From NCBI GenBank assembly GCA_016928975.1, contig JAFGJR010000032.1, positions 1-59,855 on the forward strand: DNA of 59,855 bases, given 5' to 3'. This DNA comes from Sedimentisphaerales bacterium. GTDB lineage: Bacteria > Planctomycetota > Phycisphaerae > Sedimentisphaerales > SG8-4. Each line of letters begins with the position of its first letter. The stretch's first letter is position 1. Made by a program: the position numbers and the translations under genes. Under the pieces are notes generated by a model. The model worked only from the letters and a program-made list of their open reading frames with translations. It was not told the DNA's origin and did not search any database. Below, piece by piece: positions 688 through 23,045 of the stretch.

Positions 688-901
688 CCTCCGCCCGCAA
701 TATGACTTGGGCGAGCTGCTCAAGACGGGCGTGCAGGGCAAATACGCCGAGAGATACCGCCAGGGGACAAATCTCGTGTTCCTGGCTCCCGACGTGGCCG
801 ACGCCTTTCCCTCGGCCGAAGCTGTCAATGAGACCTTGCGCCTGGTCCTCCAACTGACCAAGCTGCGTGCCAAAGGCAGGAAACCAGTCAGGAAGTCATG
901 A
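653..901 (+). CDS. Antitoxin partner of BrnT (82 aa)
   Basis: This small basic protein probably neutralises the upstream BrnT and represses the shared promoter. It begins MKKKSAEGRNDDLRPQYDL and contains GKYAERYRQGTNLVFLAPDV then F-P-x-x-EAVNETLR, a pattern found in many small antitoxins adjacent to BrnT, HigB or RelE toxins. The C-terminal half would form the ribbon-helix-helix-like DNA-binding part. It starts inside the toxin gene, in another frame, so translation is likely coupled. The exact antitoxin family is not certain, so I give no symbol. Confidence 0.82.
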   Translation: MKKKSAEGRNDDLRPQYDLGELLKTGVQGKYAERYRQGTNLVFLAPDVADAFPSAEAVNETLRLVLQLTKLRAKGRKPVRKS

Positions 902-910
902 CGGCCATCT

Positions 911-1160
911 CGGCCCCCTTCCCTGTCCTTCCCGCGAAGCCTGTCCTCGACCGGATCGAGGAGCGGCAATCCAGGTGTTCTCACGCAGAGAACTGAAAGG
1001 AAGAAGGTAGGAGCCAACCGACGCTGGCCCCTGACACCCGATCTCCGACCCCTGTTCCTCAATCCGCAATCGGACGGGCCTGCCCGTCCTCCTGCCCCAA
1101 TCATCAATCGTAAATCGGGGCTTCTTTTTTCCACAAGACTGGCTTTCCTGGCACCGCTTG
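911..1160. repeat. Cluster of dispersed intergenic repeats, left side of the R-M operon
   Basis: This stretch holds no convincing gene. It contains a second copy of the CCCTTCCCTGTCCTTCC...GTCCTCGACC...GATCGAGGAG repeat (about 911-985). At 1028-1054 there is an element whose reverse complement matches the doubled GGGGATCGGG-TGTCAGGG element at 7790-7890. The same families therefore lie on both sides of the restriction operon, in opposite orientation. Confidence 0.7.
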
Positions 1161-1202
1161 TCACCTGTCACATATCACTTCCCACTGCGGCCCCCGCCGC
1201 TT

Positions 1203-1265
1203 GGCTCACTGTCACTTGTTTTGGATATCTAAGCCCGGTCTTCGGACCGGGCTTTCTTTTTGCGC
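1203..1265 (+). repeat. 63-bp direct repeat, copy 2 (duplicated rRNA terminator)
   Basis: This is a near-identical second copy of 141-203, including the hairpin at 1231-1254 and the T-rich run after it. On the plus strand it would terminate transcription from the toxin-antitoxin pair. It lies 11 bp from the stop codon of the convergent res gene. Read from the minus strand the hairpin has no U-tract, so it is a poor terminator for res. Confidence 0.88.
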
Positions 1266-1276
1266 TCCGCTTGTGC

Positions 1277-4087
1277 TTACTCCATAGCAGGGGACGCGAT
1301 AAGGTCGGGTAGATCGGAGGGATTCTGCGAAACGGACCACGACCATGCCCCGAAGCCAGCGTGTGCATTCACCGCTTTGACCCATTCATCGAGAAAGGCC
1401 CGCTTGGTCCTATCCTGCTCAGTGTCCTGTCCCTTCGTCTCAAGGATCAGGAACGTGCCGTTCGCCAGCCGGATCAGGAAATCGGGCCGGTACTTCCGTA
1501 TGACGCCGCGATAGGTGTAGAGCACCTCAAAACCCAGGTGGTCATTCTTCGCCCAAGCTGCCACGTTCTCGTTGCGGTCAAGCTGGAACGCTTCGCTGGC
1601 TTCCCACGTGCTATCGAAGACGCAGAAGTTGATATGAGACCGCTCTGTAAACTCGCACGGCCTGCCCGTGTACCACGTTCGCATATCGCCCGTAGAACGA
1701 ATCGGCCGGTCATTGTCGAAGACCGGCTCAAGGGTCTCCACGTTGTCAGGCCGGATAGCATCGGCGATATGTTGAACCACCCGGTTCATGTTCAGGGTGA
1801 TGACGATGCGCTTCCTCAGTTCGTCCTGGTGAAAGAGGGAAGGCGAAACCCGAATCTTGCCGCTTTCGATGAACTGCTCTACAATCCGAAACAATTGTGC
1901 CAGCAGTGCTTCCTTGCTGCCCTTCCAGTTCTTCTGCATTTTCTCATAGTTGTCAAGAGCAACGCGAAACACGATCCGTTGCATCCTGTTCTCGCGGCCG
2001 AGTCGCTCCAGATCGATAGCCGTGATCTTCGTCACATCGGGCTTGCCTTCTACTATTGGGGCCATTTCCGCCAACTGCGCGGTCTCAAAAGCATTCAGTT
2101 CCAAGGGCTTGACCGTCTTGAAATCAAGCGAAAGACGCGGCCGGAACACGCTGTCTATCCGGATGATATTCGGCCAGCGAATCTCGAATTGCCTCTTCTC
2201 CGCGACCGGCTCAATCGCCGTCTTCGGTGGCGGTGGCGGCGGTGGCGGTCCGTCCTCTGACTCATGCGGCAAGAACGTGAACGGCACACCGAAGATGTTG
2301 ACGTACTCGGCTTCCATCAGCCCCGTCTTGGGGTTCAACTCATAAGCGGTACGCCGTAAGCCCCGCCCGACAACCTGTTCGCAAAGCAACTGGCTTGTGA
2401 ACGCACGCAAGCCCATGATATGGGTCACTGTCTTGGCGTCCCATCCCTCGGAGAGCATCCCGACAGAAATCACGTTCTGAACGAACTCCCCATGCTTGCC
2501 TCTCTGCCCTACGGTATCGACGATCTGCCTGAGCAGTTCCGCCATTTTCTGTTTCGTCAGCTTCTTTGTTGGCTGCGCTTCTTCCTCTGCGTCCTCACCC
2601 GGCTCGACCTGGATAGCCAGCGCCTCTTCTTTTGCTTCGGCTTCGTCCAACACTTTCGAGTCGATATGCAACGTTCGCTCCGGATTGCACAACTCACTGA
2701 TTTCGACTTTCTTATGGTCGAAGGCATACTTGATCCGCGCTGCTGTGTGGGTCGTGTTGGCAACGGTTATCATCACAGGCGGTGTGGTGCGGCCCACCTT
2801 CTCCCACTGCTCGGCGGTTTCTTTCCAGTCCGTTCCGAGAAGGTAGTACCCATTGATCACAAGGTCCGGGAGTGGCTCTTCCGGCTCGGCCTTACGGATG
2901 ATGTCGGCGCTCACCGTTGGGTCTCGGTATATGTGATAGAGCTTGGACTTGTAGGTCTTGGCGTCCGGCAGAGCATCGTCTCGGACCACCACGCGCGGAG
3001 TCTTCACAAGCCCCGATTCGATAGCATCGTTCAAGCCAAAGTCACTGACTACCCATCCGAATAATGCTTCCTCAGAACTCTTCTTGCCGGACGGGGTAAA
3101 CGGCGTTGCCGAGAAGTCAAAGCAGTTCAAAATCGCACGCGCCTGATGGATTCGATCCAGACCGCCTATCCAGACAGTCGCTTCTTCGGCGCTGTCCTTC
3201 ATGTCTCGCTGTCTCAGGTATTTGCCGATGGACTCGACATTGATCCGCCAGGCGTGGTGGGCTTCATCATTTATCACCACGATGTTCCGTGCATTCGCCA
3301 TATCGCCCAGGACTTCGCGCACGTAGGCTTCGTTGCTCTTGACGCCTCTCTTATCGACGCCGCGTCTCTTGGCAAGCTGCTCTTCGGTATCCCAGCTTAG
3401 CGTGTGCCAGTTGTGAATGATGATCTTGCCCTGTCTGAGCTTCTCAATCAGGCCAGCCGGGACAAGATTGAACTCATCGTAGTAATTCCCTGCGCCGAAG
3501 GGCTGTAGCACCTGCAAGCGGCTTTTGACCGTCAAGCCGGGTGCAATCACGAGAACGTTCTTGGAGAATCGCGTGTCTTGCGGATATGTCACCTTGTTCA
3601 AGACCTGCCACGCGATGAGCATGGCCATAACGACGGTCTTGCCGGACCCGGTAGCCATCTTGGCGCACAGCCGGACGAAATCCCCGCCGTCTTTCGGCAC
3701 GTCGATTCCCACCTTCTCAGAACCAGGCCCTTCAATCAGCCAGATCAACGTTTCTATCGCTTCCAACTGGCAGAAGAAGAGCGGATACTGCCTCTCCTCG
3801 ATGCTTCGCCAGTGTTCGAGCAGTCTCTTGGTGATGCCCGTGATACCCGGATAGCCCGCCTCTCGCCACGCCTTCACGCGGGGCCGGATTTTGTTCACGA
3901 GCGGCAGCTCGACGAACACGCCAGGATCATCGAAGTCTTGCGAGTCCGGTGTCGCCACCACGTAACCTGCAGGCCGGCGGCCTTCTCTCTTGTCGAAGGT
4001 CCGCGTCTGTCTGTCGTAGTGCCAGTGGCACTTCGGCTCCTCGTAAGGCGAGTTGACGATCAAATGGTCTATCGTAGTACGGCTCAC
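1277..4087 (-). CDS. res: Type III restriction enzyme, Res subunit (936 aa)
   Basis: This is the ATP-dependent translocating endonuclease subunit of a type III restriction-modification system; with Mod it cuts DNA carrying unmethylated sites. It has a superfamily-2 helicase core: Walker A ATGSGKT at about 145-151, DEAH in VINDEAHHAW at 274-277, SAT in FDFSATPF near 326, and a late EGWDAKTV...QVVGRGLRR motif. The C-terminal PDFLIRLANGTFLILETKG is a PD-(D/E)xK nuclease motif. A run of eight prolines precedes the C-terminal third. The start is GTG at 4087, whose last bases form the TGA of the upstream dinD (GTGA overlap). It is the last gene of mod-dinD-res and appears intact. Confidence 0.93.
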   Translation of the reverse strand: MSRTTIDHLIVNSPYEEPKCHWHYDRQTRTFDKREGRRPAGYVVATPDSQDFDDPGVFVELPLVNKIRPRVKAWREAGYPGITGITKRLLEHWRSIEERQYPLFFCQLEAIETLIWLIEGPGSEKVGIDVPKDGGDFVRLCAKMATGSGKTVVMAMLIAWQVLNKVTYPQDTRFSKNVLVIAPGLTVKSRLQVLQPFGAGNYYDEFNLVPAGLIEKLRQGKIIIHNWHTLSWDTEEQLAKRRGVDKRGVKSNEAYVREVLGDMANARNIVVINDEAHHAWRINVESIGKYLRQRDMKDSAEEATVWIGGLDRIHQARAILNCFDFSATPFTPSGKKSSEEALFGWVVSDFGLNDAIESGLVKTPRVVVRDDALPDAKTYKSKLYHIYRDPTVSADIIRKAEPEEPLPDLVINGYYLLGTDWKETAEQWEKVGRTTPPVMITVANTTHTAARIKYAFDHKKVEISELCNPERTLHIDSKVLDEAEAKEEALAIQVEPGEDAEEEAQPTKKLTKQKMAELLRQIVDTVGQRGKHGEFVQNVISVGMLSEGWDAKTVTHIMGLRAFTSQLLCEQVVGRGLRRTAYELNPKTGLMEAEYVNIFGVPFTFLPHESEDGPPPPPPPPKTAIEPVAEKRQFEIRWPNIIRIDSVFRPRLSLDFKTVKPLELNAFETAQLAEMAPIVEGKPDVTKITAIDLERLGRENRMQRIVFRVALDNYEKMQKNWKGSKEALLAQLFRIVEQFIESGKIRVSPSLFHQDELRKRIVITLNMNRVVQHIADAIRPDNVETLEPVFDNDRPIRSTGDMRTWYTGRPCEFTERSHINFCVFDSTWEASEAFQLDRNENVAAWAKNDHLGFEVLYTYRGVIRKYRPDFLIRLANGTFLILETKGQDTEQDRTKRAFLDEWVKAVNAHAGFGAWSWSVSQNPSDLPDLIASPAME

Positions 4088-14469: not shown

Positions 14470-16341
14470 CTACATGCCGGCGAGCAGGACCACGGCGTTG
14501 AGGAACAGGTCCTTGCCCGCCTGGGTCATCTTCGCCGGCGGCTCGACGAAACCCCAGAGCAGAAATCGTCCCGCCTCCAGGACCAGCGGGTAGTTGTCAT
14601 GGCTGCCGGTGGCGGAGCGACCGAGCGGGATCACCGTCTCGGGGACGGGACGCAGATAGATGTTCACATCCGCCGTCTCGCTGTACAGCGAAAGAATTCG
14701 GTCCGGGCCTATCGCGATCGGGTTCGGCCTCGCAAACAGCGATGCGTTTGGATCGACCACGTAGATACTCTTGTTGCTGGCATGGCCGCCATTCGGATGG
14801 CCGATGGCGAGGCGGAGCTTGCCGAATAGAGCATATCCCCCCTCGCCCAGCCCGATCACCGGCTTGCCCGATTCCTTCACCGTTGTCACGGACTGGTCAT
14901 TGCCCCAGCCCGACAGGTACCCTGTGTCGTTCCCCACTATGACTACGTCACAATCCGCCAGCGTAGAGGTGGTCACGTCCTTCAATGCCACGACGCTGAC
15001 GGAGCAGCCGTGTCCTTCCAGGAGTGACACAAAGCCTTCCGCTGCCTCCGAGTTATTTGAGAAGACATACACCACCCGCGGCATCACAAGCTCCTGCGGA
15101 GTCGCAGACAGGCTGGCCTCTATCGTGCCACCATAAGCGCCCATATTGATCCGCCCGCCATTCGGTTGCGGCTCGTCACCGACGGGACTATTCGGATCGC
15201 CGCCATCGATACAGGGGCTGGTGGCGTCGTCGACAACCCAGCTCTGGCTGTTCGGGTCCCAGCGTCCCGCCTGAGATTTCAGATGATAGTCGCCATCGAT
15301 CCAGATGGCGTTCGGACTATTGGGATCGACAGGGACATTGACGCTGTTCGGGTCTGCCCAATAGCCGACCTTCGCAAAGCACGGGTCCACGTCCACATTG
15401 CCTTCTCCCTGCCAACCTCCGGCGATATTGCTATACGCGATGTCCGGACGGACGGGGTATCCGCCAGCTTCGTTCGGATGATTGCCCCAGAGAATGCAGT
15501 TGGACACAGTGCAGCGGTTGGAGATCGCGCCGGCGTACCCGCCCGAGTTGTTATAGAACGTGCAGTTGATCACCTGGGCGTCGCCACCATAGGTGGCAAG
15601 AGCCCCGCCGCCCCAGCCGGCGTGGTTGTCGGTGAAGAGGCAGTTGGTTATGGTCGGGTTGCCGCCGTAGCTGAGAATGCCGCCCCCCTCGCCTGCCATG
15701 ATGGCGTTCCCGTGAAACCAGCAATTCGTTATCACCGCGTTGGCGTGTGTAAGACGGAGGCCCGGCCCGCCCTGGCCTGCCGGACGTCTCGGGATTGCCG
15801 TATCCCTTCCTCCGGTAATCGCAAATCCATCGAGGACCGTCGCGGCGGTAAGCTCCTCACCTGTGACAACGTGCGAGACGTTGCCCGTTGGGGTAAGTAC
15901 GTCCAGGAGGTCCCTCGGAAACCCTGTGGGGACATCATCGCCGCCGAGATCGCCGCTGAGCGTGCTTCGATACTTGTGAACGTCTCGCACATTGGGATCC
16001 GGCGCCAAAACCCCGGCGTAGCCTCCTCTAAGGACAGCACCCTCCACAAGCTCAAACGTGAAGACGTAGGTCCCATGTTTTTCGCCAACTCGCTCGACAG
16101 TTCGGTCGGGCCTGTAGATGCCTTGTCCAACGCGAATCTCGACAGGCTTTTGGACCGTCCTGGCCAGCGCCAGAGCATCCTGGAGATGGTCAAAGGCGTT
16201 CACCCAGGAGGACCCGTCACCCAAGCCCCTGGCATTATCGTCCACATAGATGATCTTGCCCCGGCTATTGCAGGCTGCCGCCGCCAATATGGCCATGGCC
16301 AGCAGAAGCACTCGCTTTGTCCTGATCGTGTCCCAACGCAT
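14470..16341 (-). CDS. Right-handed beta-helix lipoprotein with GATase-like C-terminal domain (623 aa)
   Basis: A lipoprotein signal (LLLAMAILAAAAC, Cys24) is followed by IIYVDDNARGLGDGSSWVNAFDHLQDALA, the standard opening of planctomycete parallel beta-helix proteins. Repeating rungs with N-C-x-F (VITNCWFHGN, TITNCLFTDNHAGWGGGA, QVINCTFYNN, TVSNCILWGN) form the helix to about residue 290. Calcium-loop-like DPNS segments follow. From about 415 the sequence changes to RVVYVFSNNSEAAEGFVSLLEGHGC and VVIVGNDTG...GKPVIGLGEGGYALFG, which resembles a class I glutamine-amidotransferase-like flavodoxin fold without an obvious catalytic Cys. The role is probably surface polysaccharide binding; the substrate is unknown. 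Confidence 0.75.
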   Translation of the reverse strand: MRWDTIRTKRVLLLAMAILAAAACNSRGKIIYVDDNARGLGDGSSWVNAFDHLQDALALARTVQKPVEIRVGQGIYRPDRTVERVGEKHGTYVFTFELVEGAVLRGGYAGVLAPDPNVRDVHKYRSTLSGDLGGDDVPTGFPRDLLDVLTPTGNVSHVVTGEELTAATVLDGFAITGGRDTAIPRRPAGQGGPGLRLTHANAVITNCWFHGNAIMAGEGGGILSYGGNPTITNCLFTDNHAGWGGGALATYGGDAQVINCTFYNNSGGYAGAISNRCTVSNCILWGNHPNEAGGYPVRPDIAYSNIAGGWQGEGNVDVDPCFAKVGYWADPNSVNVPVDPNSPNAIWIDGDYHLKSQAGRWDPNSQSWVVDDATSPCIDGGDPNSPVGDEPQPNGGRINMGAYGGTIEASLSATPQELVMPRVVYVFSNNSEAAEGFVSLLEGHGCSVSVVALKDVTTSTLADCDVVIVGNDTGYLSGWGNDQSVTTVKESGKPVIGLGEGGYALFGKLRLAIGHPNGGHASNKSIYVVDPNASLFARPNPIAIGPDRILSLYSETADVNIYLRPVPETVIPLGRSATGSHDNYPLVLEAGRFLLWGFVEPPAKMTQAGKDLFLNAVVLLAGM

Positions 16342-17238
16342 CGATCCTCACCTCCTGTTCCGCATCCCGAAACGTGCCCACGAGGATGCCGATAGCTCCG
16401 CCGTGTTCCCTCCCGTGACTATCCTTCTCTCATGGCCTCCTTTTCCCCGGGGGTCATGCCATACAGTATTCAGTGTACAGGGTTGAGCCGGCGGGGTCAA
16501 GCGAATCGGCGCAGCAAGCCGGGTGCCATGTCTACCCTTGCCGCTGCTACCCGTGTTTGTCATCTTGAAAAGGGGCCGGCGGACAACGCCCATTGGCCGG
16601 CTCGCCAGGCAAGAGACCCGGCGCTGTAAGTCCCTGTGCCGCAGGCATTTGCAGATATTATCGCTATCTAACAGAAATTCCTGCAACATGTCGACTCCCG
16701 GAGCGTCTGCAGTATATGGTCTTATGACCAAGTGCTGCCCGAGGTCCGCGAATCCCGTCGGCAGCCAAAAGCATGCAAAACAAAGCCGACCCGGCGATTG
16801 CGGATTTCTGACTGCGGATTGATGGGAGGGGCATCTTGTGCAAAACAAAGCCAATCGCGGCAACTGACACGTTCGGCAGGCGTGGAGGCGTAAGATAATG
16901 CGTCTCTACAGGAGGCAACGCCTTGCGGCGTCACTACGAGCGCATCCGGCTGCATCCCGAGTCTGGTTCGCTGTGCGAAACAAAGCCAATTGGAAGAAAT
17001 GCCATGTAGCACCCCCGCCCTCGGGGGTGATCCCAGCCGGGGGCGGCTGGGCTACATCGTGGCGGACCCGGCGCGCGGAACAAAGCCAATTAGGCGGGAG
17101 TCGGCTGATGTGGATGGGCGGGAGGGATTTGGGATTTGAGATTTTGGATCTGGGATTTACAATCTGGCTGCGCGTCACAGATGACACGCGAGTCTCAAAT
17201 CGTAACAGATGGTAAGTCATAGATCACGAGGGTTAACC
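16342..17238. other. Gene-free 0.9-kb region
   Basis: I find no reading frame with protein-like content here. The right half holds four copies of a short dispersed motif (separate entry). 17015-17060 contains the palindrome-like CCCCCGCCCTCGGGGGT...CCCAGCCGGGGGCGGCTGGG. The left end probably contains the promoter of the minus-strand beta-helix gene, but no clear -35/-10 pair stands out. Confidence 0.5.
16775..17092 (+). repeat. Four copies of a GC(A/G)(A/G)AACAAAGCCAAT motif
   Basis: Copies start at 16775 (GCAAAACAAAGCC), 16840 (GCAAAACAAAGCCAAT), 16975 (GCGAAACAAAGCCAATTGG) and 17075 (GCGGAACAAAGCCAATTAGG). Spacing is about 65, 135 and 100 bp, so it is not a regular array and not CRISPR. 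The intervening sequence differs each time. It looks like a dispersed intergenic element inserted or duplicated repeatedly. Confidence 0.75.
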
Positions 17239-18733: not shown

Positions 18734-18762
18734 TTGCAGTCGCGTGCGGATTAAGGTATCTT
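18734..18762 (+). promoter_or_regulatory. Promoter of PEP-CTERM cassette 1
   Basis: -35 TTGCAG (18734-18739), 17-nt spacer, -10 TATCTT (18757-18762). It is the weakest match of the four cassette promoters. The conserved leader block begins 7 nt after the -10 box. Confidence 0.6.
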
Positions 18763-18768
18763 AAGTAA

Positions 18769-19038
18769 TGATCTGCGATCACTTGGCACGCACATTGATG
18801 CCCCGTCAGGTATTATGCACATCTGGAGTCTCTGCGTGTCCGTACCTTCCGCGATCAGCGACACAGGGAAGACACGCTTTCCGGCCCCAGCAAGCTGGAC
18901 GGCTCCGCCTGGGTGCATCCTTCTGACACGCGGAACGTGTCGGACGTGGGCAGAGATTAAACGTTGGATGCAGGCGGTCATACAAAGGATGACCTGCGTC
19001 ACCTGATTGATGTGAGATTTGAACAGGAGGATATGATG
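18769..19038 (+). promoter_or_regulatory. Conserved 5' leader of PEP-CTERM cassette 1
   Basis: This untranslated leader of about 270 nt opens with TGATCTGCGATCACTTGGC (18769-18787), the block shared by all four cassettes. ATTGATGCCCC and a GCGTGTCCGTAC segment follow, and further on CCGCCTGGGTG, matching the conserved CTGCCTGGGTG loop of the others. It is the most divergent copy. It ends with AGGAGG (19025-19030). I read it as a structured leader RNA; its ligand, if any, is unknown. Confidence 0.55.
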
Positions 19039-19608
19039 ATGAAGACATTGGCAGTATTTGCTGCCGTGTGCCTCATGACAGGGGCGGCCAGCGCTGCATG
19101 GAACTATGGCACGTGGGAAACCCCCGCCTTTGCAGCCGGCACATGGCAGGAACTCTTCAGTGGCGGCGGTCCGGGCCAGGCCGGCAACGTACTCAGCGGC
19201 GGCAGCGCCGATTGGGGCCTCGCCGGCGCCACACTGGACACCGTGGTACCCGCGGCTGCTCCCTATGCTTGGGAGACCGAGTACGTCGACGGCGTGCTCA
19301 CGCTGAACGCCTCCGGCCCCTGGGCCGGCGCAGGCACGTTTGACATGGGCCCGATCACCGTTCTGAGCACGGGCACCACACTTCCGAACGGCATGCTCGA
19401 GTGGTCTATGTACGGCACAAGCACCACGGGCATGGTCAGCGTCTGGGCCACCTATCAGGGGCCGATGACTCTCCTGCCCGGCGGCGCCGGGCTCGAGGGC
19501 GACGTTACCTGGGCAAAAATCCAGGTTGTCCCGGTTCCCGGAGCGCTGCTGCTTGGCGTTGCGGGCATGGGTCTCGTGGGTTATCTTCGCAGACGCAGGG
19601 CCTTCTAA
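19039..19608 (+). CDS. PEP-CTERM-type sorted secreted protein 1 (189 aa)
   Basis: A short exported protein: a signal peptide (MKTLAVFAAVCLMTGAASA), a Gly/Ala/Trp-rich beta-type body with two WxxY-like segments, and a C-terminal sorting signal VPVPGALLLGVAGMGLVGYLRRRR. That tail has the PEP-CTERM tripartite form (P-x-P-G-A, hydrophobic helix, Arg cluster) recognised by exosortases, so the protein is probably cleaved at the membrane and passed to the surface or matrix. Three in-frame ATGs lie at 19033, 19036 and 19039; the third sits 8 nt from AGGAGG and fits best. No enzyme motif is visible. Confidence 0.82.
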   Translation: MKTLAVFAAVCLMTGAASAAWNYGTWETPAFAAGTWQELFSGGGPGQAGNVLSGGSADWGLAGATLDTVVPAAAPYAWETEYVDGVLTLNASGPWAGAGTFDMGPITVLSTGTTLPNGMLEWSMYGTSTTGMVSVWATYQGPMTLLPGGAGLEGDVTWAKIQVVPVPGALLLGVAGMGLVGYLRRRRAF

Positions 19609-19633
19609 GCCTGGATCTGCGAACCGTATCTTC

Positions 19634-19669
19634 AGGGCTGCAAACGCGCTCGTGCTTGCAGCCCTTTTT
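19634..19669 (+). terminator. Terminator of PEP-CTERM cassette 1
   Basis: GGGCTGCAA pairs with TTGCAGCCC across an ACGCGCTCGTGC loop and is followed by TTTTT. Its stem sequence is nearly the same as those ending the other cassettes. Confidence 0.88.
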
Positions 19670-19775
19670 CATTAGCTGTGCCCGCAGGCCGGGGACAAAA
19701 GCGATCGTAAGTCCTTTCTGTGCAACACCGTGCGTGCGGGGGCCGAGCCGGCGGCGAAAAAAGAGCATACTAATC

Positions 19776-19804
19776 TTGACATCTTGCGGGCGTGCGGGTA
19801 TAGT
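19776..19804 (+). promoter_or_regulatory. Promoter of PEP-CTERM cassette 2
   Basis: Perfect -35 TTGACA (19776-19781), 17-nt spacer, -10 TATAGT (19799-19804). The leader block TGACCTGCGATCACTTGGC starts at 19811. Confidence 0.82.
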
Positions 19805-19810
19805 GTAGGT

Positions 19811-20105
19811 TGACCTGCGATCACTTGGCGAGTGTGTATCAGCGCCCATATCTACTATTGCGCTCCGTGTAGTGCCTCTGTACGTCTATGCCTGTTGGCG
19901 GCTGGAGGAGCCGTGGTTTCTGGGAACGGCCCACCAGCAGCACGGCAAAGGTTCCGGTCTGCGATCGCGATCGGAACAGGAGACGATTCTGCCTGGGGAG
20001 TATGTGTCTGGCGCGCGATAGTCTGGTGTGGGAAACTGGATGTTCGGCTGGAGTCCGGCCGAGCACCCGAACCGTTTCCTCTCAGTGTTCAGTTAGGAGG
20101 ATCAC
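19811..20105 (+). promoter_or_regulatory. Conserved 5' leader of PEP-CTERM cassette 2
   Basis: This leader of about 295 nt begins with TGACCTGCGATCACTTGGC, then TATCAGCGCCCAT and a TGCGCTCC...GCCTCTGTACGTC hairpin. GTTCCG (19951-19956) pairs with CGGAAC (19972-19977) where cassettes 3 and 4 have an unrelated GGCCGC stem, so the pairing is kept while the bases differ. The GATTCTGCCTGGGGAG segment carries the conserved loop. TTAGGAGG lies just before the start codon. Confidence 0.6.
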
Positions 20106-20753
20106 ATGGGACATAGGAAAACGGCTTGCCTGGCGTTGGCGGTGGTCCTGCTACCGTTGAGCAGCGTGAGCCTGGCGGTCCCCGATGTGTACACGGTTGA
20201 CAGCTTCTTCGACGTCTGGGCCGATGTGACGCTGGTCGAGGACTTCGAAGCGGTGACTCCGAAGGACACGGCGTTGCCATCGTTCACCAGCAACGGCATC
20301 ACGTACACAGGGACACAGGCTTCGAACCCGAACGTATGGGTAGCCTCTCCCGGCTACACCAATTTCGGTGTTCCGACGACCACCAGCAGCGTGCTCACGA
20401 GTACCGGACCCGAGGACTTCGTGATTGATCTGAGTGCATTTTCCTACACGGCGGTCTCCTTCGACGCGTACCTCAACAATCTGGGGCCCGTGATCGTGGA
20501 GGTCTACGGCAGTGGCCCGACCCCGATGTTGACCCATGTTGATCTTCGCGGGGCGGGGATGTGGTTCACCGGCTATACTGCCGCAGAACCGATCACCAGC
20601 ATCCACTGGACGAGTGTAGGCGGCGCACAGGTCAACACGGGAATCGACAACCTGAAGCTGGGATACTACGTAGCCCCAGCTCCGGGCGCTGTCCTTCTCG
20701 GGGCGATCGGCACCTGCCTGGTAGGCTGGCTGCGCAGACGAAGATCGCTGTGA
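20106..20753 (+). CDS. PEP-CTERM-type sorted secreted protein 2 (215 aa)
   Basis: It has an N-terminal signal (CLALAVVLLPLSSVSLAVP) and a mature part rich in Thr, Ser and Gly that looks like a beta-sandwich: VEDFEAVTPKD, FTSNGITYTGTQ, SFDAYLNNLGPVIVEVYGSG and GIDNLKLGY. That last pattern recalls PEP-CTERM proteins in which a final I-D-N-L-x-x strand precedes the tail. The tail is APAPGAVLLGAIGTCLVGWL then RRRRSL. Sorting by an exosortase is predicted; none is encoded in the window. It differs in its body from the neighbouring proteins but shares their cassette layout. Confidence 0.82.
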   Translation: MGHRKTACLALAVVLLPLSSVSLAVPDVYTVDSFFDVWADVTLVEDFEAVTPKDTALPSFTSNGITYTGTQASNPNVWVASPGYTNFGVPTTTSSVLTSTGPEDFVIDLSAFSYTAVSFDAYLNNLGPVIVEVYGSGPTPMLTHVDLRGAGMWFTGYTAAEPITSIHWTSVGGAQVNTGIDNLKLGYYVAPAPGAVLLGAIGTCLVGWLRRRRSL

Positions 20754-20778
20754 CCGTCCAGGCAAGCATGAACACCCT

Positions 20779-20810
20779 GGGGCTGCGAGCGCTCGCTTGC
20801 AGCCCCTTTT
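20779..20810 (+). terminator. Terminator of PEP-CTERM cassette 2
   Basis: GGGGCTGCGAGC pairs with GCTTGCAGCCCC around GCTC, followed by TTTT. The same stem motif ends cassettes 1 and 4. Confidence 0.85.
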
Positions 20811-20870
20811 CTGTTGTCAAATCCGCGAAACCATCCCGATAAAAAAGATGGGAAAATCGTACCTTCCCCC

Positions 20871-20900
20871 TTGACAACGCGGGAACGGGATAGGTATAGT
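20871..20900 (+). promoter_or_regulatory. Promoter of PEP-CTERM cassette 3
   Basis: -35 TTGACA (20871-20876), 18-nt spacer, -10 TATAGT (20895-20900). An A-tract (TCCCGATAAAAAA, from 20834) lies upstream and recurs before cassette 4, as an UP-element would. Confidence 0.85.
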
Positions 20901-20907
20901 CTGCTAC

Positions 20908-21206
20908 TGACCTGCGAGGACTTGGCACTCATATCAGCGCCCCCATCGACCGTTGCGCACTTTGCAGAGCCTCTGTGCGTCCATATCCATATGCCGCCGG
21001 GCTGTCGAGGTTTGGGAATGACCGGCGGGATGATGAAGGCCGCAAGTCGCGGCCCGACCAGGCTGGGCGAATCTGCCTGGGTGAGGATTCGTCGGAGGCG
21101 TGATGGACCCGATGGTGGGGAGACTGACGTTCCTTCAGAGGCTACATTACGGGGACATCGAAACCGTATCTCTCAATCAATGACACGGATGTGTCAGGAG
21201 GACAAG
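20908..21206 (+). promoter_or_regulatory. Conserved 5' leader of PEP-CTERM cassette 3
   Basis: This leader of about 299 nt starts TGACCTGCGAGGACTTGGC. Successive hairpins are TGCGCAC...GTGCGT, CCGCCGG (20995-21001) with CCGGCGG (21023-21029), GGCCGC (21039-21044) with GCGGCC (21050-21055), and CGAATC (21069-21074) with GATTCG (21087-21092), the last presenting the conserved TGCCTGGGTG loop. A final TGACAC-GGAT-GTGTCA hairpin touches the GGAGG ribosome-binding site. The upstream start that would extend the protein into this region was rejected because its sequence is not protein-like. Confidence 0.65.
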
Positions 21207-21875
21207 ATGAAGAGATCAAGCAAGTCGATGTTGGCGACAGTAGCCGCAGCCTTGCTGGCCGCTCTGCCAATGTCAGCAGATGCGGTTCCCTCGATCATGC
21301 ACACCGCGAATACGACCGTGGGAAACCAGCACTGGAGCGGCGGGGGATTGACGTTCGACGTCGTCGATCCGGGCGTTGAAGTCTTGAAACTCGGGATATA
21401 TGACAGCGGAGCCGATGGCATTGTCGGCGACAGTACGGTGCTCACGACCGTCCTGTTCGACGCGAACCAGAACGTGATCGCTCAGATGGACTTCACAGCC
21501 GCCGATCCGGGCGTGTTCGATGCCGCGAGCAACTACTGGTTCAAGCCGTTGGAGGAGCCGCTGGCCCTGCCCGTCGGGCAGTACACCATTGTCGGGTACG
21601 GCTGGAACACCGCCAATCTCGAGCACAATAGCTTCCTTGGCGGTCCTGGACCTACGTTCCACAACGACGGGATACAGTTTGTGCAGTCCGTATGGACGGC
21701 CACGCCCGCGGACCCGGCTCCCACCTGGCCGACAGGGACACACGGTCCTACGGCTCCCGATTATTTCGACGGGCCGAACATGATGATCGTCCGAGTCCCG
21801 GCCCCCGGAGCCGTCCTGCTCACTGCTGGAGGCATAGGTCTGGTGGGTTATCTTCGCAGACGCAAAATGTTGTAG
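21207..21875 (+). CDS. PEP-CTERM-type sorted secreted protein 3, paralogue of protein 4 (222 aa)
   Basis: A signal peptide (MLATVAAALLAALPMSADA) is followed by HTANTTVGNQHWSGGGLTFD, VEVLKLGIYDSGADGIVGD, LTTVLFDANQNVIAQMDFT, ASNYWFKPLEEPLALPVGQY and TIVGYGWN. This resembles DUF4082-like beta-sandwich modules found in secreted proteins. It ends VRVPAPGAVLLTAGGIGLVG then YLRRRKML, a PEP-CTERM-type tail. It is clearly homologous to the next gene over its whole length, and the leaders are homologous too, so the pair arose by tandem duplication of a complete cassette. ATG 21207 follows GGAGGACAAG. Confidence 0.85.
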   Translation: MKRSSKSMLATVAAALLAALPMSADAVPSIMHTANTTVGNQHWSGGGLTFDVVDPGVEVLKLGIYDSGADGIVGDSTVLTTVLFDANQNVIAQMDFTAADPGVFDAASNYWFKPLEEPLALPVGQYTIVGYGWNTANLEHNSFLGGPGPTFHNDGIQFVQSVWTATPADPAPTWPTGTHGPTAPDYFDGPNMMIVRVPAPGAVLLTAGGIGLVGYLRRRKML

Positions 21876-21900
21876 GCTCGGCTTGCGACGTGGTATGTGT

Positions 21901-21930
21901 AGGGGTGCAAGCGCCGGTGCTTGCACCCCT
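21901..21930 (+). terminator. Terminator-like hairpin of PEP-CTERM cassette 3
   Basis: AGGGGTGCAAGC pairs with GCTTGCACCCCT around CGCCGGT-type loop bases. It occupies the terminator position of the other cassettes but has no T-run (ACCCTG follows), so termination may be weak and transcription could continue into cassette 4. Confidence 0.6.
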
Positions 21931-21999
21931 ACCCTGATTGTGGAATCCGCAGAGCAAGTCCCGATAAAAAAAAAACATGAGAAAACCGTCCTGTCCCCC

Positions 22000-22029
22000 T
22001 TGACAGTGCCGGAACGGCAGGGGTATAGT
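22000..22029 (+). promoter_or_regulatory. Promoter of PEP-CTERM cassette 4
   Basis: -35 TTGACA (22000-22005), 18-nt spacer, -10 TATAGT (22024-22029). It is preceded by TCCCGATAAAAAAAAAA, like cassette 3. Confidence 0.85.
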
Positions 22030-22035
22030 AAAGAC

Positions 22036-22328
22036 TGACCTGCGAGAGCTTGGCGCGTATATCAGCGCCCCCATCAACCATTGCGCACTTTGCAGAGCAT
22101 CTGCGCGTCCATACCGGTCTGCCGCTGGACAGTCGAGGTTTGGCGATGGCCAGCGGCACGACAAAGGCCGCAAGTCGTGGCCCGACCAGGTTGGGCGAAT
22201 CTGCCTGGGTGACGATTCGTCGGAGGCGTGATGGACCCGATGGCGGGGAAATCGATGTCCCTTCAGAAGTTCCCTGACGGGGACATCAAGACTGTTTCTC
22301 TATGACACGTATGTGTCGGGAGGATGAG
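22036..22328 (+). promoter_or_regulatory. Conserved 5' leader of PEP-CTERM cassette 4
   Basis: This leader of about 293 nt begins TGACCTGCGAGAGCTTGGC. Compared with cassette 3, the first long stem changes from CCGCCGG/CCGGCGG to CCGCTGG/CCAGCGG (22122-22128 and 22150-22156), a compensatory C-G to T-A switch. The GGCCGC stem (22166-22171) keeps pairing through a G-U with GTGGCC (22177-22182). CGAATC (22196-22201) with GATTCG (22214-22219) again closes the conserved loop. The last hairpin, GACAC-GTAT-GTGTC, abuts GGGAGG. Confidence 0.65.
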
Positions 22329-22985
22329 ATGAAGACACTAACCAAGCCGATGTTGGCGATGTTGGCCGCAGCCTTGCTGGCCGCGCTTCCAATGTCGGCG
22401 ATCGCGGTCCCCACTCCTATGCACACCGCGAACACGACCGTGGGAAACCAGGTCTGGGGCGGCGTGGGATTGACGTTCGACGTTGTCGATCCGCGCGTCG
22501 AGGTCCTGGCCCTCGGTATCTACGACAGTGGGGCCGACGGCATCGTCGGAGTTGATACGGTCCTTACGACCGTCCTCTTCGATGCAGCGCAGAACGTGGT
22601 CGCATCGATGACCTTCACGGCCGCCGATCCGGGCACGTTCGATGCAGCGAGCAACTACTGGTTCAAGCCTTTGTGTGACCCGCTCGCGCTGCCGGTCGGA
22701 CAGTATACCATTGTCGGGTACGGCTGGGACTCTTCCAACAAGGAACACAACATGAACCTTGGCGGGCCCGGACCTGATTTCAACAGCGGTGGGATACAGT
22801 TCGTGAAGTCCGTGTGGACAGCATCAAACACGGCTGCCGCTCCGACGTGGCCGACACAGTCCGGCGCTCCGGACTACTTCGACGGGCCGAACATGCTCGT
22901 TCGAGTTCCGGCTCCAGGAGCCATCCTGCTCAGTGCTGTGGGCATGGGTCTTGTGGGGTATCTTCGCAGACGCAGAGCACTGTAG
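22329..22985 (+). CDS. PEP-CTERM-type sorted secreted protein 4, paralogue of protein 3 (218 aa)
   Basis: The organisation matches the previous protein: signal peptide (PMLAMLAAALLAALPMSAIA), HTANTTVGNQVWGGVGLTFD, LALGIYDSGADGIVGVDTVL, NYWFKPLCDPLALPVGQYTI, then VRVPAPGAILLSAVGMGLVG and YLRRRRAL. The body is a DUF4082-like beta-sandwich and the tail a PEP-CTERM-type sorting signal. Most differences from its neighbour are in the loop before the tail (TAAAPTWPTQ versus PADPAPTWPTGT). The predicted fate is cleavage by an exosortase and display in the envelope or extracellular matrix. The ligand or role is unknown. Confidence 0.85.
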   Translation: MKTLTKPMLAMLAAALLAALPMSAIAVPTPMHTANTTVGNQVWGGVGLTFDVVDPRVEVLALGIYDSGADGIVGVDTVLTTVLFDAAQNVVASMTFTAADPGTFDAASNYWFKPLCDPLALPVGQYTIVGYGWDSSNKEHNMNLGGPGPDFNSGGIQFVKSVWTASNTAAAPTWPTQSGAPDYFDGPNMLVRVPAPGAILLSAVGMGLVGYLRRRRAL

Positions 22986-23011
22986 GCTCGCCCCTGCGAT
23001 GCAGTACATCG

Positions 23012-23045
23012 AGGGCTGCAAGGACTCACCCTTGCAGCCCTTTTT
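23012..23045 (+). terminator. Terminator of PEP-CTERM cassette 4
   Basis: AGGGCTGCAAG pairs with CTTGCAGCCCT across a GACTCACC loop and is followed by TTTTG. It also lies between this gene and the convergent efflux adaptor. Confidence 0.9.

What the first reader, a model, noticed from the sequence alone, without database searches (positions are those of the whole stretch)
18734..23045. Four tandem promoter-leader-PEP-CTERM-terminator cassettes with a shared long untranslated leader
Each of four PEP-CTERM genes has its own sigma70-like promoter (TTGACA/TATAGT in three), then an untranslated region of 270-300 nt beginning TGAYCTGCGANNNCTTGGC, then ATCAGCGCCC-like and CTGCCTGGGTG blocks, and ends with a GGGCTGCAAG-type hairpin. 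The bodies of proteins 1 and 2 are unrelated to those of 3 and 4, yet the leaders are recognisably the same. Conservation of a leader across unrelated coding regions suggests selection on the RNA or DNA itself. I know of no described regulatory RNA with this consensus; that is memory, not a search.
Basis: partly seen in the sequence, partly recalled or inferred. Interest (0 to 1): 0.8.

Follow-up and report, generated by a model that had tools for sequence, protein, structure and literature searches.

The report
Shared leader of surface-protein gene cassettes
Four neighbouring genes for cell-surface proteins in an unnamed planctomycete-like bacterium each begin with the same roughly 300-letter untranslated stretch, which in the closest pair changes only half as fast as the DNA around it, so it is probably a working control region, but one that looks private to this lineage rather than a widespread new RNA class.

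Summary
Four tandem PEP-CTERM-like genes each have a sigma70-like promoter, a 264-299 nt leader and a hairpin; a model of any three leaders finds the fourth (worst E 8.9e-9), while genes 1 and 2 match 3 and 4 clearly only at the C-terminal anchor. Between the closest pair the leader differs at 46/293 sites; fourfold synonymous sites (36/104) and upstream intergenic DNA (21/63) differ twice as much. That favours purifying selection on the leader. A conserved fold is suggested but unproven: a held-out test fails once transition bias is allowed. No Rfam match. No convincing relative elsewhere: a strict pattern over 84,980 genomes gave two matches inside coding sequence; a profile gave 0 of 397 and 0 of 89 genomes at its thresholds; a 61% identical protein in G413 has an unrelated leader. 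Other genomes show the same arrangement with other leaders, e.g. 10 copies in G013, none in 60 others. Verdict: a real, probably functional, lineage-specific leader family, not a broad new cis-regulatory RNA class.

The parts
18734..18762 (+). cassette 1 promoter-like site, TTGCAG-17-TATCTT (weak)
   Evidence: read; position of the -10 box; not among the sites called
18769..19032 (+). leader 1 (264 nt)
   Evidence: alignment; leave-one-out E 8.9e-9
19033..19608 (+). gene 1, 191 aa, signal peptide (by eye), VPVPGA...LRRRR tail
19635..19664 (+). terminator-like hairpin GGGCTGCAA...TTGCAGCCC followed by a T run
19776..19804 (+). cassette 2 promoter-like site TTGACA-17-TATAGT
19811..20105 (+). leader 2 (295 nt)
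   Evidence: leave-one-out E 8.4e-22
20106..20753 (+). gene 2, 215 aa, APAPGA...LRRRR tail
20779..20806 (+). terminator-like hairpin
20871..20900 (+). cassette 3 promoter-like site TTGACA-18-TATAGT
20908..21206 (+). leader 3 (299 nt)
21207..21875 (+). gene 3, 222 aa, VPAPGA...LRRRK tail
21901..21930 (+). hairpin AGGGGTGCAAG...CTTGCACCCCT without T run
   Evidence: read
22000..22029 (+). cassette 4 promoter-like site TTGACA-18-TATAGT
22036..22328 (+). leader 4 (293 nt)
22078..22086 (+). 5' strand of the proposed long-range helix of leader 4 (CCATTGCGC); partner at 22226-22234
   Evidence: A3 columns 45-53 with 206-214: 94.4% of cells paired, 2 of 9 pairs changed on both sides, 4 on one side, 3 never vary
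22226..22234 (+). 3' strand of the proposed long-range helix (GCGTGATGG)
22329..22985 (+). gene 4, 218 aa, VPAPGA...LRRRR tail; 61% identical homologue in genome G413 over residues 12-218
23011..23042 (+). terminator-like hairpin

Best explanation
Each gene is its own transcription unit for an exosortase-type surface protein. The approximately 300-nt leader is a transcribed, probably folded 5' untranslated module that one ancestral cassette carried; tandem duplication copied it, the protein bodies were then replaced or diverged beyond recognition, and the leader was kept by purifying selection because it sets the output of these mRNAs (stability or translation), most likely through a factor in trans that reads the 5' block CUGCGANNNCUUGGC and the GCCUGGG block and so controls all four genes together. 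Shown here: homology of the leaders, bodies 1 and 2 unlike the others, promoter-like sites in one fixed place, slow evolution of leader 3/4 relative to its flanks. Inferred: transcription from those promoters, the fold, the trans factor and the regulatory effect. As far as the searches reach, the leader is private to this lineage; related genomes use other, unrelated leaders for the same kind of gene.
For: Leave-one-out homology. Leader 3/4 divergence 46/293 = 0.157 against 36/104 = 0.346 at fourfold sites (Fisher p 1.1e-4), 21/63 = 0.333 in the intergenic DNA upstream of -35 (p 0.0022), 6/18 in the promoter spacer and 19/56 after the stop codon: slow evolution starts near the predicted transcription start. 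15 of 19 columns of the first block are invariant in the four, against 3 of 17 in the promoter spacer and 5 of 29 upstream of -35. Fold: 42 pairs, 93.1% of 160 cells paired, 12 pairs changed on both sides against at most 5 when slid (the structure came from this alignment, which favours it); with the structure re-derived on 500 column shuffles, energy 1/500 and compensatory pairs 4/500; four MAFFT settings z -2.2 to -2.5 for energy. Similar arrangement elsewhere: five G013 genes on five contigs with leaders 87-95% identical over 310 nt, one of them (L148) alike to the others in protein only at the ends; of 10 copies in G013, 6 stand before a PEP-CTERM gene and 2 before a gene with the same signal peptide that runs off the held stretch.
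Against: Gene conversion confined to the leader would also make leaders 3 and 4 alike. Columns kept between leaders 1 and 2 are not the ones kept between 3 and 4 (odds ratio 0.91-1.22, p 0.35-0.67). The RNAalifold covariation term alone is ordinary (51-117 of 200 shuffles reach it), and so is the fraction of cells paired in the re-derived test (74/500). A structure derived from leaders 3+4 alone is kept in leaders 1 and 2 better than under uniform substitution (reached by 87-194 of 5000 simulations with all pairs, 121-542 with confident pairs) but not under a transition-biased null (861-3244 of 5000), and 33 of 46 leader 3/4 changes are transitions. Single-sequence folds are mixed (z -1.2, -2.3, -0.4 and -3.0 for leaders 1-4). 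No consistent hiding of the ribosome-binding site (unpaired 0.49, 0.65, 0.93 and 0.04). The nearest protein homologue found has another leader.
Confidence: 0.5

Rival explanations
1. Passive inheritance: the cassettes arose by tandem duplication with exchange of the middle of the gene; the leader is simply older shared flank with no function beyond an ordinary 5' untranslated region.
For: Tandem arrangement; genes 3 and 4 are duplicates (76% protein identity); no convincing leader homologue in other genomes; no site-by-site agreement of constraint between the pairs 1/2 and 3/4; no covariation beyond transition bias in the held-out test.
Against: Between cassettes 3 and 4 the leader diverges at half the rate of the neighbouring intergenic DNA, promoter spacer, 3' flank and fourfold sites; leaders 1 and 2 remain recognisable although their bodies do not.
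Confidence: 0.27
2. Recombination module: leader at one end and anchor plus terminator at the other are homologous arms kept alike by gene conversion, so that surface-protein bodies can be swapped between cassettes; leader similarity serves or results from DNA exchange, not RNA function.
For: The anchor-coding 90 nt also stay alike between genes 1, 2 and the rest (58-76% against 40-47% in bodies); in G013 dispersed genes share leader and signal peptide while some bodies differ.
Against: The slow stretch begins near the predicted transcription start, and the 3' flank of genes 3/4 diverges like the other flanks (19/56), although it should be an arm as well. No recombinase or exchange between strains was looked for.
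Confidence: 0.15
3. DNA-level control: the conserved blocks are binding sites of a transcription factor or of sigma-54 within the leader.
For: The first leader holds a sigma-54-like site with one mismatch at 18784-18799; the window as a whole has 40 such sites with up to 2 mismatches against 28, sd 4.9, in shuffles.
Against: No such site with up to 2 mismatches in leaders 2-4 (GG-to-GC spacing 13, 13, 11 and 11 in leaders 1-4 instead of 10, read); TTTACA of the proteobacterial motif 1 is absent from the region; conservation spans some 200 nt downstream of the promoter-like sites.
Confidence: 0.08

Closest known systems
Upstream element of proteobacterial PEP-CTERM genes (motif 1 + sigma-54 motif 2, PrsK/PrsR; Haft et al. 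2006, PMC1569441; passages, section 7)
   Same: Mostly single-gene units for sorted surface proteins, more than 200 nt of non-coding DNA in front, one shared element in front of many genes, exopolysaccharide genes nearby
   Different: There a DNA element of two 17-nt motifs with a -24/-12 promoter, shared only among Proteobacteria; here a sigma70-like promoter followed by a conserved, presumably transcribed region, without those motifs in 3 of 4 copies
Bacterial cis-regulatory leader RNAs in Rfam 15 (riboswitches and similar)
   Same: A conserved leader of about 300 nt between promoter and start codon, possibly folded
   Different: No match at gathering score in the region. At E up to 5 only two hits, 18.2 and 15.5 bits against gathering 59 and 70, both outside the leaders. 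No wide distribution, no visible switch
   Same: Promoter-like site plus about 320-nt leader shared by genes with partly differing bodies; found in one genome only (1 of 61)
   Different: Unrelated sequence, dispersed over contigs, 87-95% identical among five copies, no fold or covariation signal in the same test

Membership tests
PEP-CTERM / exosortase substrates | C-terminal sorting domain scoring above the TIGR02595 or PF07589 cut-off | tested here: not met
   Gene 3: TIGR02595 14.8 bits against 16; gene 1: PF07589 18 against 20.7; genes 2 and 4: neither listed
PEP-CTERM / exosortase substrates | Tripartite tail: P-x-P motif, hydrophobic stretch, basic end; signal peptide in front | tested here: met
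   P-x-PGA, hydrophobic stretch and LRRR in all five rows of A2 (four genes and the G413 homologue); a match to this tail in 19 of 31 genomes around G413 at E <= 0.001; signal peptides judged by eye only
PEP-CTERM / exosortase substrates | Exosortase in the genome | not testable with these tools
   No whole genome is held for the window; the window itself was not scanned for one
Proteobacterial PEP-CTERM upstream element (Haft 2006) | Sigma-54 -24/-12 motif 2 in front of the gene | tested here: not met
   One-mismatch site in leader 1 only, none with up to 2 mismatches in leaders 2-4
Proteobacterial PEP-CTERM upstream element (Haft 2006) | Motif 1 ending in TTTACA | tested here: not met
   The window has TTTACA at 1646, 17156 and 55814 only
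Rfam cis-regulatory RNA | Match to a curated covariance model | tested here: not met
New cis-regulatory RNA class | Homologues in other genomes in front of PEP-CTERM genes | tested here: not met
   metagenome contigs not searchable here
New cis-regulatory RNA class | Significant covariation | tested here: inconclusive
   for: (compensatory pairs); against: covariation term
Riboswitch | Ligand binding and an expression platform | tested here: inconclusive
   No consistent hiding of the ribosome-binding site; ligand binding not testable

The most novel reading that the evidence does not exclude
Planctomycete-like bacteria give their sets of exosortase-anchored surface proteins a species-private, structured 5' leader, a kind of RNA regulon tag that is copied with each new cassette, kept by selection within a genome and replaced between related species, so that unrelated surface proteins are switched together after transcription.
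Probability: 0.2. Interest if true: 0.72.

Novelty: new variant of a known kind. Interest (0 to 1): 0.45.

Why it matters
Large intergenic regions in front of PEP-CTERM genes were noted in 2006 and given a shared motif only for Proteobacteria (PMC1569441, passages and section 7). This case suggests that in planctomycete-like genomes part of that space is a transcribed leader under selection, shared by genes with unlike bodies, with different leaders in different genomes. It gives a concrete, testable target for how sets of surface proteins are coordinated, and a caution: leader conservation inside one genome does not mean a widespread RNA class.

Tried and rejected
Sequence-only model R1 in the order of G262: 13 of 114 genomes at E <= 0.01, best 4e-4. 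The four of these that I saw aligned score 19-21 bits and start past the first block; rejected as chance. R1 in the class of G046: 0 of 397 at E <= 1e-4, with only about 3 candidates scored per genome; family of G413: 0 of 89 at E <= 1e-3; 39 genomes around G413 with laxer filters: 7 of 39 at E <= 0.05, best 0.0038, taken as chance without looking at each. These sets overlap. No genome with a known copy was available as a positive control for R1; the G013 DNA query only shows that a search of this kind finds close copies. First block with up to one mismatch in 161 genomes of the order of G413: 57 genomes, 81 matches by my count of the list, all with one mismatch, at most 3 per genome, G413 none. 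The backward-pattern control has fewer (32 by my count), so the forward pattern is somewhat enriched; several matches are the same string in different genomes, which suggests conserved genes, but I did not check their context. 30 of the 81 are held as loci, and none is among the 20 best matches of a profile of the four leaders over all 305 loci held (best E 0.0045, taken as chance). IMG/VR: 90 stretches hold the first block, near what chance gives by my own estimate, none with extended similarity beyond chance.

Apparent conserved leaders in front of PAPGA clusters of G252, G387 and G423 turned out to lie in the coding end of a neighbouring gene; for the other genomes in that group I infer the same from similarity. 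Apparent cross-genome similarity in G013/G046/G111 was in part the anchor-coding end of a preceding gene (by reading). Ribosome-binding-site hiding: not consistent. Sigma-54: not met in three copies. A conserved reading frame through the leader: rejected by reading, since leaders 1 and 2 carry 1- and 2-nt indels within conserved blocks. Placing the organism by MnmA gave at best 51% identity.
Full report
What is there. Four single-gene units lie in tandem on the + strand between 18734 and 23042. Each has a sigma70-like promoter (for three; the first, TTGCAG-17-TATCTT, read), a leader that begins with TGAYCTGCGANNNCTTGGC 6-7 nt after the -10 box, a Shine-Dalgarno site, a gene of 191-222 codons with a signal peptide (by eye) and a P-x-PGA sorting tail, and a GC-rich hairpin. 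The hairpin after gene 3 lacks a T run, and the scan calls only those after genes 2 and 4. Polysaccharide genes lie further on in the window (Pfam matches to SLBB/Poly_export, Wzz, Bac_transf and Polysacc_synt_3), as described for exosortase systems (PMC1569441, passages).

Is the leader similarity real? Models of any three leaders find the fourth in the window with E 8.9e-9 (leader 1), 8.4e-22, 6.4e-56 and 1.6e-59; the best unrelated match has E 0.08. Proteins 3 and 4 are duplicates (76% identity over 222 positions); 1 and 2 match the others clearly only in C-terminal stretches of 25-44 residues, besides one marginal match of 2 to 3 (E 0.005).

Is it under selection? Between cassettes 3 and 4 the leader differs at 46 of 293 sites (0.157). 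Fourfold degenerate codon sites differ at 36 of 104 (0.346; Fisher p 1.1e-4), intergenic DNA upstream of -35 at 21 of 63 (0.333; p 0.0022), the promoter spacer at 6 of 18 and the stretch after the stop codon at 19 of 56. Four neighbours thus agree on about one third, and the leader alone is half that. This rests on one pair of cassettes, and gene conversion restricted to the leader is not excluded. A further test went against constraint on fixed sites: columns identical in leaders 1 and 2 are no more often identical in 3 and 4 than the others (odds ratio 0.91-1.22, p 0.35-0.67 over three alignments).

Does it fold? The consensus structure (long-range helix 45-53/206-214 of A3, a branched inner domain, and a hairpin that includes GCCUGGG) keeps 93.1% of 160 cells paired, with 12 of 42 pairs changed on both sides; versions slid by 1-3 columns give 0-5, though the structure came from the same alignment. 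With the structure re-derived on 500 column shuffles, the energy is reached once and the 14 compensatory pairs 4 times, while the fraction of cells paired is ordinary (74/500). Over four MAFFT settings the energy is reached by 5, 0, 2 and 4 of 200 shuffles, but the covariation term alone by 90, 117, 51 and 93. A structure taken from leaders 3+4 alone is kept in leaders 1 and 2 only as well as transition-biased substitution would keep it (861-3244 of 5000 simulations reach the observed count; uniform substitution 87-542 of 5000), and 33 of the 46 leader 3/4 changes are transitions. Single leaders fold with z -1.2, -2.3, -0.4 and -3.0. I call the fold likely but unproven. There is no shared hiding of the ribosome-binding site.

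How far does it reach? Rfam has nothing at gathering score, and at E up to 5 only two hits outside the leaders. A two-block exact pattern that leaders 2-4 satisfy was run over 84,980 species genomes: 2 matches, both read as coding sequence. The profile R1 found nothing convincing in 114, 397, 89 and 39 genomes (overlapping sets, limited numbers of candidates scored). The first block with one mismatch in 161 genomes of the order of G413 gave 81 scattered matches (my count) against 32 for the backward control, no exact one and at most 3 per genome. No match in plasmid or phage records with leader 4. The telling case is G413, which encodes a 61% identical homologue of protein 4 over residues 12-218: it too has a promoter-like site, a leader of about 190 nt and a hairpin (read), but no stretch of it scores above chance against R1 with filters off, and no two upstream regions of the G413 genes tested match each other.

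The same arrangement with other leaders. In genome G013, five PEP-CTERM genes on five contigs have leaders 87-95% identical over 310 nt; one of the proteins matches the other four only at the ends, others are related along their length (24-74% identity). A DNA query with one of these leaders finds 10 places in G013 (itself included) and none in 60 other genomes; 6 of the 10 stand before a PEP-CTERM gene, 2 before a gene with the same signal peptide cut by the end of the stretch, and for 2 none was seen. This family gives no fold or covariation signal in the same test (energy 49/150). In G426, two genes (L244, +2495 and -709) have leaders 86% identical over 224 nt and proteins that match only over the last 34 residues; part of that leader recurs before two genes of G434. 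The 310-nt figures for G426 count masked N and are not used. That set gives energy 2/150 but no compensatory pair. None of these leaders matched the window's in the all-against-all comparisons. So leader families confined to one or two of the genomes compared recur, which speaks for a shared way of building such cassettes rather than for one conserved RNA.

Mechanism. I take the leader to be a transcribed control module kept by selection and copied with each cassette; a trans-acting factor is the simplest reason for one leader to serve unlike genes. That step is inference. Rivals are passive inheritance after duplication (0.27), recombination arms (0.15) and DNA-level control (0.08).

Literature. 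Five searches of the PMC library listed no paper, among the titles and abstract beginnings shown, that describes a leader RNA of PEP-CTERM genes; the library holds open-licence papers only, the lists were cut at 12-20 rows, and one search returned mostly unrelated papers. Haft et al. 2006 (PMC1569441; passages, section 7) is the precedent. A paper on an RpoN-dependent PEP-CTERM gene in Aquincola (PMC9850573) was seen in a search listing only.

Noticed in passing
   Followed up: partly
window 21103-21183 and 22231-22305: In leaders 3 and 4 an ATG shortly after GGAGG opens a frame of 26 and 24 codons (MDPM...) that ends 23 nt before the main start codon; I saw no counterpart in leaders 1 and 2 by reading.
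   Followed up: partly
   Followed up: partly
L244, L245 (G426) and L236 (G434), upstream of PAPGA genes: By eye, the shared leaders of G426/G434 hold a stretch resembling the end of that neighbouring gene but with stop codons, as if the leader had arisen from its decayed 3' end.
   Followed up: no
window 16513-16528, - strand: The only exact sigma-54 consensus match of the window (TGGCACCCGGCTTGCT), about 170 nt upstream of the gene 14470-16341 on the - strand.
   Followed up: no
genomes around G413: 19 of 31 genomes have matches to the P-x-PGA tail model, a sorting-tail variant that scores below the curated PEP-CTERM cut-offs in the window genes; it may deserve its own model.
   Followed up: partly
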